Shown: in pieces, positions 2,804-9,320 of the stretch
Numbering within the stretch: position 1 is the stretch's first letter
How the letters are laid out: every line of letters starts with the position of its first letter
IMG/VR virus record: IMGVR_UViG_3300049491_000354
Span: 1 to 23,353 of that record
DNA length: 23,353 nucleotides
Direction: 5' to 3' (one strand)
Origin: a virus
The notes under the pieces: model-generated
What the model was told of the DNA's origin: nothing
Seen by the model: the letters and a program-made list of their open reading frames with translations, nothing else
Database searches by the model: none
Translations under genes and position numbers: made by a program

Positions 2804-2905
2804 ATGTGTGTTGAGCCGTATGGTTTCGGGTTAGCTATGTGTTTCTTCGCAGGTTTCGGGTTCAGTGTACTGGTAAGGTACGCGATAGAAAGATTCATAA
2901 ACTAG
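2804..2905 (+). CDS. Small membrane protein, 33 aa
   Basis: ATG at 2804 has a perfect AGGAGG (2791-2796) seven bases upstream. The product, MCVEPYGFGLAMCFFAGFGF then SVLVRYAIERFIN, is one glycine/phenylalanine-rich transmembrane helix with a basic C-terminal end. Function is unknown. The strong SD immediately after the long stem-loop at 2631-2791 argues that this very short ORF is translated. Confidence 0.6.
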   Translation: MCVEPYGFGLAMCFFAGFGFSVLVRYAIERFIN

Positions 2906-2919
2906 GCGGCGCGACCACC

Positions 2920-2931
2920 TAGTCCGGACTA
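2920..2931. promoter_or_regulatory. Palindromic repeat TAGTCCGGACTA
   Basis: Perfect 12-base palindrome in the gap before the gene at 3023. A second perfect copy lies 63 bases downstream (2983-2994). Between them is the hairpin GTCAGTG/CACTGAC (7 bp, 8-base loop). The paired arrangement would suit cooperative binding of a dimeric regulator. Confidence 0.65.
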
Positions 2932-2982
2932 TTCGCTAGTTGGTAACGGCGTAGTCAGTGTACCTATGCACTGACGTGTGAG

Positions 2983-2994
2983 TAGTCCGGACTA
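2983..2994. promoter_or_regulatory. Palindromic repeat TAGTCCGGACTA
   Basis: Perfect copy 28 bases before the GTG start at 3023 and 16 bases before its AGGAGG SD. A short hairpin CTGG-TTGTA-CCAG follows. Its closeness to a start codon would allow control of transcription or of translation. Confidence 0.65.
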
Positions 2995-3022
2995 GCTGGT
3001 TGTACCAGATAGGAGGTAACAT

Positions 3023-3253
3023 GTGAGTCTCAGATCACAGGAGAGGGGATGGGCTGGCCTTTACTATCACTGCACAGGATGCGGGGTAAGGGTTAAGTCT
3101 GTCAACTTGTCCGGTGTGTGTCAACACTGCGTAGGTGAGTATGAATTGCAACAGTTTCAGCGGGGTAGGATTGACCACCCACCTAAGCAGCCCCCAACTA
3201 CGGTTGATCCGTCCATCAGTGATGATGGCCCCGCTTTTTCTAAGGAGGAATGA
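3023..3253 (+). CDS. Small zinc-ribbon-like protein, 76 aa
   Basis: GTG start at 3023 with AGGAGG at 3011-3016; the overlapping ATG at 3021 would stop at once. The sequence YYHCTGCGVRVK and GVCQHC give two CxxC pairs about 18 residues apart, the pattern of a small zinc ribbon, followed by a Pro-rich, acidic tail. No specific family is recognised. The stop overlaps the next start. A nucleic-acid or protein-binding role is an inference from the Cys pattern only. Confidence 0.6.
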   Translation: MSLRSQERGWAGLYYHCTGCGVRVKSVNLSGVCQHCVGEYELQQFQRGRIDHPPKQPPTTVDPSISDDGPAFSKEE

Positions 3254-6203: not shown

Positions 6204-7517
6204 ATGGGTTTGGTCATTCCAAACTCTAAGGTATCTACGATACGCCGTCAGGCGAACCGTAAGCACCCCGAAAGGGACAGTGCTGACCGGTATCGTGCGA
6301 TACCCGGTGCATTCGTGAGCAAGGGGAAGAACGGGGATGTGTTGATCCCGCTCTGGGCCTTGCAATCGGTAGGCACCGCAGCTGGTAATACACAGCTGCA
6401 ATCCGTACTCGACAGGTTGTTAGTTGTCGAAAGACAACTAGCTGTCCTGAAGGGATACGCTGCTCCAACATCGGATCGACCTATGACTCCGGTGCCGAAG
6501 GAGCTGGTGAGTGAGGCACGCACTGCCGTTTCAGTGCCGGGCAATGAAGCCGAGCGGCTGACCCCGCCGGACGTTAGCCCGAAGCGAGAGACGGTATTGT
6601 TATTGCCAGCTCCTTCGAATGTGGTACCACTGAACCAAGTCAGGATGCCCGTCCAACCGGCAGCCAACGACGAGGCACCAGTGGAGGTAGTGAGTCACCC
6701 CCCTCCGCTTCCAACGGATGACGAGGGTATCACCACCGCTTGGTTGGAATCGCAGTTCGGGTTCTCGCCAATGGAACAGTTCCGTGTGTTGGATCGTGAG
6801 TTCCACCGCCGGAATAAGAGCGCTCTTAAGACTCATGGTATGACGTACACCGAGATCCGTATCAAGCGCAAGCTTGCAACACGCAACATGGAGGTGCGTG
6901 ACGGAAGGATGGTCCATCGTTCGGACGTCTACTTCCCCTCGGAAGACTCGAAGTACAAAGAGTGGAGTGCCACCGCTGGAGCGGCTGGCCCGACACGGCT
7001 GTCGTTGTTGGCGTTCCTCGCCAAGCAAGGACGGGACCAGCACCGAGCTTACAAACGGGGGATGGCCTTCACTCCCGAGGCGTACCGTAAGCGGACCATG
7101 CGTGCTGAAGCTCGACGTAAGATGGACATCATCGGTCGCCTCGATGGTGCCAAGTTCATGCATGGCGTCCGCTTTGCAATGGTAGATTCACTTGCCTATG
7201 AAGTGAACAACCGCACGTCAGCATCCCAGCTGAAGGCGGCGGGTCTTTGGTTCCGTGATGTCACCGACCGTGTACGGCGTGTGATTGGAGTCGATGTCCC
7301 TGACCGTGGCAAGGCAGTGCGTGAACGAGCAGAGCGTGAAGGGTCGGTACTGCAAGGCATCAAGGACTGGTTCACCGAGCGTAAGACGCCGAGTGATGGT
7401 GGTCCTCCTATCCCTCACCCTGCTGACTTCCTCATTTCCCAAGTACTCCCCGGACCGGATGAAGTACCGGTACGTGAGCTGATCCGGGGGTATCAGCGAG
7501 CTGGCATCGGTCACTAG
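6204..7517 (+). CDS. Orphan protein, 437 aa, largest in the left arm
   Basis: ATG at 6204 has AAAGGAGG upstream at good spacing. Residues 1-85 are basic and then helical (VSTIRRQANRKHPERDSADR; QLQSVLDRLLVVERQLAVLK), a possible coiled coil. Residues 90-180 are Pro-rich and low complexity, a likely linker. Residues 185-437 are charged, with many Arg/Lys (RKRTMRAEARRKMDIIGRLD; VTDRVRRVIGVDVPDRGKAV). I see no Walker motif, zinc motif or membrane segment and recognise no family. The layout (basic head, flexible linker, basic tail) would suit a nucleic-acid-binding or structural protein, but this is inference. Its leader carries the TAGTCCGGACTA palindrome. Confidence 0.75.
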   Translation: MGLVIPNSKVSTIRRQANRKHPERDSADRYRAIPGAFVSKGKNGDVLIPLWALQSVGTAAGNTQLQSVLDRLLVVERQLAVLKGYAAPTSDRPMTPVPKELVSEARTAVSVPGNEAERLTPPDVSPKRETVLLLPAPSNVVPLNQVRMPVQPAANDEAPVEVVSHPPPLPTDDEGITTAWLESQFGFSPMEQFRVLDREFHRRNKSALKTHGMTYTEIRIKRKLATRNMEVRDGRMVHRSDVYFPSEDSKYKEWSATAGAAGPTRLSLLAFLAKQGRDQHRAYKRGMAFTPEAYRKRTMRAEARRKMDIIGRLDGAKFMHGVRFAMVDSLAYEVNNRTSASQLKAAGLWFRDVTDRVRRVIGVDVPDRGKAVRERAEREGSVLQGIKDWFTERKTPSDGGPPIPHPADFLISQVLPGPDEVPVRELIRGYQRAGIGH

Positions 7518-7615
7518 CGGGTTGGGTGAATGATGCTGAGTTGTCCCGTCGAGTGTTCGATCACGTGATGTGAACGTGCTGAGTGCACTGCATCAGCTGA
7601 TGCTTGAGTAACAGT

Positions 7616-7680
7616 ACATCGCAGGTCAGGTTGGCTCACCGAGTGGTGGATGCCTCCGAGTGCTAGGCCCGCTGCGATGT
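7616..7680 (+). ncRNA. Small three-arm RNA
   Basis: ACATCGCAG (7616-7624) pairs perfectly with CTGCGATGT (7672-7680), enclosing CACC-GAGT-GGTG (7637-7648) and GCCT...AGGC (7652-7668). Both inner loops contain CGAGTG or GAGTG. The compact junction resembles an aptamer or processed small RNA more than a terminator. The perfect 16-base palindrome follows after two bases. Confidence 0.5.
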
Positions 7681-7682
7681 CG

Positions 7683-7698
7683 GATAGTCCGGACTATC
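7683..7698. promoter_or_regulatory. Palindromic repeat, longest copy GATAGTCCGGACTATC
   Basis: The TAGTCCGGACTA core is extended here to a perfect 16-base palindrome. Three bases later TAGTCCG-ATGA-CGGACTA (7701-7718) repeats both halves with a 4-base spacer, so the half-site is present four times in 36 bases. This is the last copy in the window; none occurs in the right-hand operon. Confidence 0.7.
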
Positions 7699-7859
7699 GT
7701 TAGTCCGATGACGGACTAGTGAATGCAGACACTAGCTAGTCCGTCGTTCATACCCTGCCTGGGGTACATACAGGTTCGGATGTGGTCGCAAGCCACGAGA
7801 ATAAATCGTCGTTGACAATGCACTGTGCGTAGACGGTGCAAGAAAGCGTGGCCTGTGTT

Positions 7860-7977
7860 TCGTACTAGGCACAGGTGAACACGGTATAGTACGTAGGATA
7901 CCGAGCCATAAACTACAGGGTTCGAATCCCTGCCGAGGTGATCCCTCGTGTCTGGTGCTAGGGCGCAGCTTGCCTAA
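7860..7977 (+). ncRNA. tRNA-like element A (T-arm with closed acceptor-like hairpin)
   Basis: A canonical T-arm, CAGGG (7916-7920)-TTCGAAT-CCCTG (7928-7932), is followed at once by hairpin CGAGG-TGATC-CCTCG (7934-7948). Then comes TG and a D-arm-like segment with CTG/CAG pairing around a GG-containing loop, and TGCCTA (7971-7976), which pairs with TAGGCA upstream (7866-7871). This order, 3' half before 5' half, is that of a circularly permuted tRNA, but the region between TAGGCA and the T-arm is about 44 bases, far longer than a normal variable arm. In the normal order only a weak 6/7 acceptor match is found far upstream (7773-7779). Confidence 0.35.
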
Positions 7978-8066
7978 GCCATGCCTCAACATGGCCCACA
8001 GCTTCACCCCTCTAGCGGGTAACACCGTGTGCTGGGGGCGGCTATCGTGAATGGCTCTGTCTGTTA

Positions 8067-8152
8067 CTAGGATTCAGAACGCAGTCCGAATGCCTTGCAG
8101 GTGCGAGTCCTGCTTCTGTCAACCAGTGTCATAGGCATGGTGTGAAAACCTA
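8067..8152 (+). ncRNA. tRNA-like element B
   Basis: The T-arm is GCAGG (8097-8101)-TGCGAGT-CCTGC (8109-8113). A short hairpin CTG-TCAAC-CAG follows, then TG and a good D-arm-like arm TCAT-AGGCATGGT-GTGA (A14, purine 15 and GG in place). CCTAG (8148-8152) can pair with CTAGG (8067-8071). No upstream strand pairs well with the 3' acceptor segment TTCTGTC, so an ordinary cloverleaf is not formed. The evidence is weaker than for element C. Confidence 0.3.
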
Positions 8153-8205
8153 GGGGTGCTAGTAAAAGGTAACAGCTGAGACTCGAAAGAGACAGTGGTA
8201 TCCAA

Positions 8206-8280
8206 GCCTCCGCAGCAGCTGCATCCCGGTTCGAATCCGGGTAGTCATTGGACTATGGCGGAACTGGTATACGCAGAGGC
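8206..8280 (+). ncRNA. tRNA-Leu-like element in circularly permuted order (element C)
   Basis: Reading in order: GCCTC (8206-8210); a 14-base class-II-type variable arm with stem GCAG-CAG-CTGC; perfect T-arm CCCGG-TTCGAAT-CCGGG (8225-8241); TAGTC-ATTG-GACTA (8242-8255) as a closed acceptor-like hairpin; TG; D-arm GCGG-AACTGGTATA-CGC (8258-8274); A; GAGGC (8276-8280). GAGGC pairs 5/5 with GCCTC at exactly the anticodon-stem position. TGGCGGAACTGGTATACGC is almost the consensus D-arm of bacterial tRNA-Leu, and a long variable arm is also a tRNA-Leu feature. So all tRNA parts are present with correct spacing but rotated, with ends in the anticodon loop and the acceptor closed by four bases. No anticodon can be read. 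Confidence 0.45.
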
Positions 8281-8323
8281 GAACAGTTGGTAAGCGATGC
8301 AGGTTTGAATCCTGCCGGTTCAC
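8249..8323 (+). tRNA. Alternative reading: degenerate tRNA-Leu-like element in normal order (element D)
   Basis: The same Leu-type D-arm can instead belong to the next T-arm, GCAGG (8299-8303)-TTTGAAT-CCTGC (8311-8315). TGGACTA (8249-8255) pairs with CGGTTCA (8316-8322) at six of seven positions (two G-U, one A-C mismatch). However, the 23 bases between the D-arm and the T-arm form no anticodon stem, and the long variable arm of tRNA-Leu is missing, so a working tRNA is doubtful. It overlaps element C, and both readings cannot be true at once. Confidence 0.3.
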
Positions 8324-8561
8324 TACCGATACGCGCTTGAGTTGGTGGTCAAGCAATCATGCCCCAACCGTGACCGTTCAGTAGGTAGCGTTAGCGAAAC
8401 ACGAGGCAGTCGCGTAAAAGCTGTAGTGATGGAGCCACATGAGACCGGTTGGTGCTGCAATGCACCGCAATGGCAGAAAGAATGCGGCAGCCCTGAAAAG
8501 CTGTGCACTGGTAGTGGTGAGACATCACAAAGAATCCATTCACTCAACAGGAGAACGACCT

Positions 8562-8969
8562 ATGAGTCTCTATCGTTTGGCGATAGTGAATGGTGTCCTC
8601 GTCCGCCAGAAGCGTGCTTTGCTGCGCTGGTGGAACTGGTCATTCAATAGGTCCGAAGAGGATCGGTTGGTGACCATGAAGAATGGCTTGGTCAAGGCCC
8701 AGCAGGCTGTCCAGATGTTGGTGCCACAGATCAAGCACGAGACAGAGCGCATAGATGGGCTCAAGAAGCAGGTCAGATCGTGGCAGGATACCAGCGGCAA
8801 AGCTGGTGGCCCGTCATGGCGTGACCGCTGGTCTCCTCGGAAGGAACCGAAGATTCTTCAGAAGGACATCAACGTAGCACGCAAGAAGAAGGAGCGCGTG
8901 CTTATCTCACAACCAGCGGAAGTGGCCCGGCTGGTAGTGGGCAGTAACAAGTTCGGGCCTAAACCATAG
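8562..8969 (+). CDS. Hypothetical basic protein, 135 aa
   Basis: ATG at 8562 is preceded by AACAGGAGAACGACC, a good SD. An in-frame ATG at 8439 exists but lies in structured non-coding sequence without SD. The product is basic and helical (LVPQIKHETERIDGLKKQVR looks like a coiled coil, around residues 57-76) with a Lys/Arg-rich C-terminal half. No membrane segment and no recognised family. It stands alone between two structured RNA regions, so it may act on RNA; this is inference from context. Confidence 0.7.
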   Translation: MSLYRLAIVNGVLVRQKRALLRWWNWSFNRSEEDRLVTMKNGLVKAQQAVQMLVPQIKHETERIDGLKKQVRSWQDTSGKAGGPSWRDRWSPRKEPKILQKDINVARKKKERVLISQPAEVARLVVGSNKFGPKP

Positions 8970-9013: not shown

Positions 9014-9320
9014 GTGGGTCCGGTTAATCCATGTATACCTCGGGTTCAACGGGTCGGAAGCAATGGACCTATCGAGCTGCACAAGTAGGGTAATCAATCC
9101 CGCTCTGGTTGAACAGAGAGATGGCGGTGCAGTGAGGTGAGCAGACAATCCCGCATCATCAGTGGTGTAACGGATGCATACCATGCGTGCCAGTAGTTCA
9201 TCTACTATTGGAGTGTCACGTCTGGAGGTAAGGGTTCGAGTCCCTTGTGGTGTAGCCGTGCGGCAGCCGGGTAGCCGGAGAACTTTCCACTGAATCCCTT
9301 GTCTAACATAAGGAGGCAGG
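9014..9320 (+). other. Structured non-coding segment holding element E
   Basis: Apart from the tRNA-like element E (9153-9254) the segment contains GGTCC/GGACC (about 9018-9068) and CTCTG-GTTGAA-CAGAG (about 9100-9117). GTTCAAC and GTTGAAC can also pair with each other as an alternative fold. CGGC-AGCCGGGTA-GCCG (9261-9277) is a perfect D-arm look-alike placed after element E. It ends with the SD AAGGAGG of the gene at 9321. Confidence 0.45.
9153..9254 (+). ncRNA. tRNA-like element E with enlarged D and anticodon arms
   Basis: The T-arm AAGGG-TTCGAGT-CCCTT (9230-9246) is perfect. In normal order GCATCAT (9153-9159) pairs 7/7 with GTGGTGT (9247-9253), three pairs being G-U. GTGGTGT/ATACCAT forms a 7-bp D-type arm with a GG-containing loop, and GCGTG pairs with CACGT as an anticodon stem. 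The anticodon loop would then be 27 bases, containing its own hairpin AGTAG-TTCAT-CTACT, as if an insertion or intron were present. Many wobble pairs and the size make it a candidate only. Confidence 0.35.

What the first reader, a model, noticed from the sequence alone, without database searches (positions are those of the whole stretch)
8206..8280. Candidate circularly permuted tRNA-Leu
All tRNA-Leu parts are present in rotated order with correct spacing: anticodon-stem 3' strand, class-II variable arm, T-arm, acceptor hairpin closed by ATTG, TG, Leu-type D-arm, anticodon-stem 5' strand. The 5/5 complement GAGGC/GCCTC sits exactly where it should. Permuted tRNA genes are known in some algae and archaea; I know of no phage example. 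A closed acceptor and an open anticodon loop might resist anticodon nucleases or act as a decoy.
Basis: partly seen in the sequence, partly recalled or inferred. Interest (0 to 1): 0.85.

Follow-up and report, generated by a model that had tools for sequence, protein, structure and literature searches.

The report
Phage tRNA mimic, Y-RNA type
This phage encodes an RNA module folded like a leucine tRNA with its amino-acid end sealed shut and its anticodon end open; it has the layout of the tRNA-mimicking part of bacterial Y RNAs, so it is best read as a tRNA mimic in a larger RNA and not as a scrambled tRNA gene.

Summary
Window 8206-8280 (+) holds, in rotated order, anticodon-stem 3' strand, long variable arm, T arm, a 5-bp acceptor stem capped by ATTG, a Leu-type D arm and anticodon-stem 5' strand. 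Chance does not explain it: 0 hits in shuffled controls. Two related phages keep the rotated fold at the same locus; of 22 pairs, 11 change on both sides and none breaks. The normal-order acceptor at 8249-8322 is not kept.

The interpretation needs changing. The order T arm, capped acceptor, D arm, with the anticodon stem as base, is the consensus of Rfam RF02553 YrlA, the tRNA-mimicking module of bacterial Y RNAs. The same modules lie beside Ro genes in isolated phages (FuzzBuster, Kingsolomon). A model built only from other phages' modules finds the window copy. The acceptor (5, 5, 4 bp; capped) cannot become a normal acceptor stem, and no RNA ligase was found.

It is an unusual member: Leu-type, a long variable arm, no detected Ro gene, no basal Ro-binding stem, and set in a conserved ~1-kb noncoding region with further T arms. 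So it is a Y-RNA-type tRNA mimic by architecture; Y RNA membership is not proven. Transcription was not tested.

The parts
8206..8280 (+). tRNA-Leu-like module in rotated order, anticodon stem as its base and acceptor capped (YrlA-type tRNA mimic)
8206..8210 (+). anticodon-stem 3' strand GCCTC, pairs with 8276-8280
   Evidence: kept in L001 (GTCTC/GAGGC) and L207 (GTCTC/GAGAT)
8211..8224 (+). long (class II) variable arm CGCAGCAGCTGCAT
   Evidence: four pairs, all changed on both sides across relatives
8225..8241 (+). T arm CCCGG-TTCGAAT-CCGGG
   Evidence: sequence; two pairs changed on both sides
8242..8255 (+). capped acceptor hairpin TAGTC-ATTG-GACTA
   Evidence: becomes CACCC-TACAT-GGGTG in L001 and CCTC-GAAA-GAGG in L207; recovered by RNAalifold
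8256..8274 (+). positions 8-9 (TG) and Leu-type D arm GCG-GAACTGGTATA-CGC
   Evidence: nearly identical in L001 and L207
8276..8280 (+). anticodon-stem 5' strand GAGGC
7518..8561 (+). noncoding region of about 1 kb holding the module, same place in L001 and L207
   Evidence: flanking ORFs conserved
7916..7948 (+). second T arm (CAGGG-TTCGAAT-CCCTG) followed by a capped hairpin CGAGG-TGATC-CCTCG
   Evidence: hairpin kept with changed bases in L001 (CAAGGG-AGGCC-CCCTTG); in L207 GGGGA..TTCCC read
7978..7995 (+). anticodon-arm-like hairpin GCCATG-CCTCAA-CATGGC
   Evidence: stem changes with pairing kept, loop CTCAA kept in L001 and L207
8097..8118 (+). T-arm-like hairpin GCAGG-TGCGAGT-CCTGC followed by TTCTG
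   Evidence: highly conserved in the alignment
8299..8328 (+). T arm GCAGG-TTTGAAT-CCTGC then CGGT-TCACT-ACCG; the 3' part of the rival normal-order reading
6204..7517 (+). upstream flanking ORF, 437 aa, no known family, no Ro MIDAS motif
8562..8969 (+). downstream flanking ORF, 135 aa, conserved in L001, L207 and PQ867844.1, unknown function

Best explanation
8206-8280 is a tRNA-mimicking RNA module of the bacterial Y RNA (YrlA) type, modelled on tRNA-Leu, inside a larger phage noncoding RNA. Shown: T arm, short capped acceptor and D arm stack on a base formed by the anticodon stem, and this fold is kept by compensating changes in two relatives at the same locus. Inferred: the base joins the module to the rest of the transcript, so no circularisation, ligation or aminoacylation is involved. 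Inferred from YrlA: the D-loop/T-loop elbow presents a tRNA-like surface that is pseudouridylated and dihydrouridylated by host enzymes and that recruits or occupies a host tRNA- or RNA-binding protein (PNPase, with host Ro if the host has one). Not shown: transcription, partner protein, phenotype.
For: Rfam RF02553 consensus has the same order of helices, with a capped 6-bp acceptor. RF02553 matches the homologous L001 module over exactly T arm-acceptor-D arm (19.2 bits, E 0.002 for that record) and gives 15.8 bits for L184, 16.6 for L109, and 31.8 bits full length (E 1e-6) in PQ867844.1, a complete Zobellviridae relative. Model R1, built from 11 other phages' modules, finds L207 41.6, L001 35.5 and window 28.9 bits. 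The same module lies next to Ro genes in FuzzBuster, Kingsolomon and SM23, and a Ro gene is on contig L191 with two such modules. Compensatory changes in 11 of 22 pairs, none broken. YrlA is described as basal stem plus a tRNA-like D/T/acceptor domain, substrate of DusA and TruB, tethering Rsr to PNPase, PDB 6CU1 (PMC8394870).
Against: RF02553 does not match the window copy itself, even at E 10, and no phage match reaches its gathering score of 69. No Ro gene in the window fragment, in the L001 or L184 contigs, or in complete PQ867844.1. No basal stem beyond the anticodon stem in window, L001 or L207 (p 0.84, 0.90, 0.35), while FuzzBuster has 14 bp. R1 also scores tandem tRNA loci at about 41 bits (L126, L139), so its score is not exclusive. 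Only three homologous sequences.
Confidence: 0.72

Rival explanations
1. A circularly permuted tRNA-Leu gene: the precursor is cut and ligated at the anticodon loop, then RNase P and RNase Z open the acceptor and CCA is added.
For: Rotated order with conserved pairing; such genes are known in algae and archaea with intervening sequences of 1-74 bp (PMC3978253).
Against: Acceptor of 5, 5 and 4 bp capped by a tetra- or pentaloop, one a GAAA; no room for 7 bp plus CCA; no conserved anticodon loop; no RNA ligase (PF09414, PF09511, RtcB) in window, L001, L184 or complete PQ867844.1.
Confidence: 0.05
2. A structural domain of a phage-specific ~1-kb RNA with several tRNA-like pieces, similar to YrlA only by convergence, with a function unrelated to Ro or PNPase.
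For: No Ro gene and no basal stem found; three more T-arm-like hairpins in the same noncoding region, one followed by a capped hairpin that also covaries.
Against: Full-length YrlA match in the nearest complete relative; many phages carry the same module next to Ro.
Confidence: 0.15
3. Remnant of a decayed tandem tRNA array: 3' half of one tRNA beside the 5' half of its neighbour.
For: Phage tRNA arrays can produce this order; L119 is such a false positive, with local anticodon hairpins on both sides.
Against: Drift would not keep 11 compensated pairs or shorten the acceptor to a capped 4-5 bp hairpin; no flanking cloverleaf halves with anticodon arms.
Confidence: 0.04
4. A degenerate normal-order tRNA at 8249-8322.
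For: RF00005 match of 23.6 bits; acceptor 4 Watson-Crick plus 2 G-U of 7.
Against: No anticodon arm; ARAGORN finds nothing; acceptor falls to 1 and 2 Watson-Crick pairs in L001 and L207.
Confidence: 0.04

Closest known systems
YrlA, bacterial Y RNA tRNA-mimic module (Rfam RF02553; PDB 6CU1)
   Same: Order anticodon-like stem, variable region, T arm, capped acceptor, two nucleotides, D arm, anticodon-like stem; compact tRNA elbow; present in phages
   Different: Leu-type D arm and long variable arm; acceptor 4-5 bp with a tetra- or pentaloop instead of 6 bp with 3 nt; no basal Ro-binding stem and no Ro gene found; set in a ~1-kb RNA region
Circularly permuted tRNA genes of algae, nucleomorphs and archaea
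   Same: Rotated order of tRNA halves with the joint in the anticodon loop
   Different: Those have full acceptor stems, a processable joint (BHB motif) and give mature tRNA; here the acceptor is short and capped
Other phage modules found here with Leu-type D arm and capped acceptor (L109, L286, L146, L160, L155, Burkholderia phage FLC9)
   Same: Same rotated order; CCTC-GNAA-GAGG cap in L109, L286 and L207; TTCG caps in L146 and FLC9
   Different: Different phages and loci; some have a 7-bp acceptor

Membership tests
Bacterial Y RNA (YrlA) | tRNA-like domain in the order T arm, capped acceptor, D arm | tested here: met
Bacterial Y RNA (YrlA) | Match to RF02553 above its gathering score (69 bits) | tested here: not met
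   window none at E 10; L001 19.2, L184 15.8, PQ867844.1 31.8 bits
Bacterial Y RNA (YrlA) | Basal stem from 5' and 3' ends that binds Ro | tested here: not met
   no stem within 70 nt upstream and 90 nt downstream better than shuffles; a more distant stem is not excluded
Bacterial Y RNA (YrlA) | Encoded near a Ro (TROVE) gene | tested here: inconclusive
   none in window (fragment), L001, L184 or complete PQ867844.1; a host Ro could serve
Bacterial Y RNA (YrlA) | Binds Ro and PNPase; modified by tRNA enzymes | not testable with these tools
   needs experiment
Circularly permuted tRNA gene | 3' half precedes 5' half, anticodon stem pairs across | tested here: met
Circularly permuted tRNA gene | 7-bp acceptor stem that can be opened and given CCA | tested here: not met
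   5, 5 and 4 bp, capped
Circularly permuted tRNA gene | Ligase or splicing system for the joint | tested here: inconclusive
   no PF09414, PF09511 or RtcB in the available records; host enzymes not tested
Normal-order tRNA | Cloverleaf at 8249-8322 | tested here: not met

The most novel reading that the evidence does not exclude
A Ro-independent phage RNA that uses one or more capped tRNA-like modules, here a tRNA-Leu copy, to occupy a host tRNA-binding enzyme or to act as a decoy for tRNA-directed defence nucleases.
Probability: 0.25. Interest if true: 0.65.

Novelty: new variant of a known kind. Interest (0 to 1): 0.42.

Why it matters
It turns a puzzling 'scrambled tRNA' into a recognisable class and shows that tRNA gene finders and the present Rfam YrlA model miss it. 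Leu-type capped tRNA mimics recur in unrelated phages, often without a detected Ro gene, which asks what phages use tRNA mimics for when they bring no Ro partner. The compensatory changes make it directly testable.

Tried and rejected
Group I or II permuted intron (natural PIE) around the anticodon joint: no Rfam match in the window. tmRNA: no match. Phage attachment site in a tRNA: considered; it would not explain the complementary 5' half with compensating changes. Ro-like nature of the upstream ORF 6204-7517: no Pfam or PHROG match and no D-x-S-x-S motif, unlike the phage Ro proteins. Phage-encoded RNA ligases: only in phages L155 and L172, and a partial match in L160, not in the window's clade. 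Bacterial genomes: 21 matches to the capped-acceptor pattern, none a tRNA-like module. No close match in 50,697 phage records. Reports of permuted tRNA genes in phages: none found in the open-access library; the primary YrlA papers are not held. Consensus promoters and terminators: none.

Full report
The window is a virus record of 23,353 bases, probably a fragment, with a phage primase-helicase, DNA polymerase and exonucleases. The finding lies in a noncoding stretch, 7518-8561, between an ORF of 437 aa (6204-7517) and one of 135 aa (8562-8969). ARAGORN and Rfam at gathering thresholds find no RNA in the window.

At 8206-8280 one reads GCCTC, variable arm CGCAGCAGCTGCAT, T arm CCCGG-TTCGAAT-CCGGG, TAGTC-ATTG-GACTA, TG, D arm GCG-GAACTGGTATA-CGC, A, GAGGC. 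A finder that demands all these stems in this order gives no hit in 20,000 dinucleotide shuffles of the region or in shuffled or reversed versions of 2.76 Mb of viral DNA.

Two relatives give the decisive test. L001 (IMGVR_UViG_3300032516_000227; helicase 83% identical) and L184/L207 (IMGVR_UViG_3300046747_000082) carry the same noncoding region between homologues of the same two ORFs. L184 was found by a pattern scan. The capped acceptor is TAGTC-ATTG-GACTA, CACCC-TACAT-GGGTG and CCTC-GAAA-GAGG; the variable arm GCAG/CTGC, AGAT/ATCT and GGGG/CCCC; the T stem CCCGG, ACAGG and GCAGG. Of 22 pairs, 11 change on both sides, one on one side, ten are invariant, and none is broken (the register was set by hand). 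RNAalifold without constraint recovers T arm, variable arm and capped acceptor, but prefers another partner for the anticodon strand. The rival normal-order tRNA at 8249-8322 scores 23.6 bits (cut-off 29), and its acceptor has 4, 1 and 2 Watson-Crick pairs of 7 in the three phages.

What it is. The finder also met the same topology in other phages. Blast with one of them (L172) led to isolated actinobacteriophages in which the unannotated module lies beside a 'Ro-like RNA binding protein': FuzzBuster, Kingsolomon, Samty; in SM23 the neighbour is called 'RNA-binding protein'. FuzzBuster's protein has a TROVE domain, and contig L191 has two modules and a Ro protein related to Kingsolomon's (E 1e-64). 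Rfam RF02553 YrlA matches these modules below its gathering score, and its consensus drawing is exactly the 'permuted tRNA': anticodon-like stem, T arm, capped acceptor, two nucleotides, D arm, anticodon-like stem. YrlA is the bacterial Y RNA, whose domain mimics the D, T and acceptor arms of tRNA, is modified by DusA and TruB, and tethers Rsr to PNPase (PMC8394870). [quoted passage not shown] From memory, Chen et al. 2014 (RNA) reported likely Y RNAs near Ro60 in many bacterial and phage species; that paper is not held.

Does the window's element belong? RF02553 does not see the window copy, but it matches the homologous L001 module over exactly T arm, acceptor and D arm (19.2 bits, E 0.002), L184 at 15.8 bits, and a full-length candidate in PQ867844.1, a complete Zobellviridae phage whose helicase is 55% identical to the window's (31.8 bits, E 1e-6). 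A covariance model made from eleven other phage modules finds L207, L001 and the window at 41.6, 35.5 and 28.9 bits, with the caveat that tandem tRNA loci can score as high. Against membership: no Ro gene in the window, in L001 or L184, or in complete PQ867844.1 (Ro was found in 7 of 21 phages tested), and no basal stem next to the anticodon stem in the three homologues, whereas FuzzBuster has one of 14 bp. I therefore call it a YrlA-type tRNA mimic by architecture, Leu-type, and leave Y RNA membership unproven.

How it most likely works. Shown: the fold. Inferred: the anticodon stem is the joint to the rest of the RNA, so no ligation is needed. Inferred from YrlA: the elbow is a docking surface for a host protein, with host Ro or PNPase as first candidates, or a decoy for tRNA enzymes. 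A permuted tRNA gene is unlikely because the acceptor is too short and capped and no ligase gene was found. Transcription was not tested; consensus promoters and terminators are absent.

The region around it holds three more T-arm-like hairpins, at 7916, 8097 and 8299; the first is followed by a capped hairpin that also covaries. The module may thus be one domain of a larger RNA, as the second rival states.

Noticed in passing
L330 (Burkholderia phage FLC9, LC667451.1 about 129275-129329): Unannotated Leu-type module with the acceptor CTGCGCG-TTCG-CGCGCAG, a 7-bp stem capped by a TTCG tetraloop.
   Followed up: partly
L208 3846-3948 (-), PQ867844.1 34445-34547: Unannotated YrlA-like RNA in a complete Zobellviridae genome; the same intergenic gap also holds a tRNA-like structure with a 10-bp acceptor near L208 3490-3580.
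   Followed up: partly
window 9220-9283: Another T-arm-containing tRNA-like stretch, with a counterpart in L001 at 2141-2204.
   Followed up: partly
L191 2391-2478, 5624-5703, 7305-8870: Phage contig with 17 tRNA genes, two rotated tRNA-like modules and a Ro-like protein of 522 aa.
   Followed up: partly
L204 about 2899-3173: tRNA-like genes with long inserts in the anticodon loop, not called by ARAGORN.
   Followed up: no
L155 2958-3395 (-): GOLLD RNA (194.9 bits) in a 283-kb phage that also has several YrlA-like modules and a Ro gene.
   Followed up: no
L155, L172, L160: The phages of L155 and L172, with full 7-bp rotated modules, also encode T4 Rnl1-type RNA ligases; the phage of L160 gives a partial match below the cut-off.
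   Followed up: no
L109 5971-5990, L286 13267-13286, L207 5862-5873: Nearly the same capped acceptor CCTC-GNAA-GAGG next to a Leu-type D arm in three different phage contigs.
   Followed up: partly
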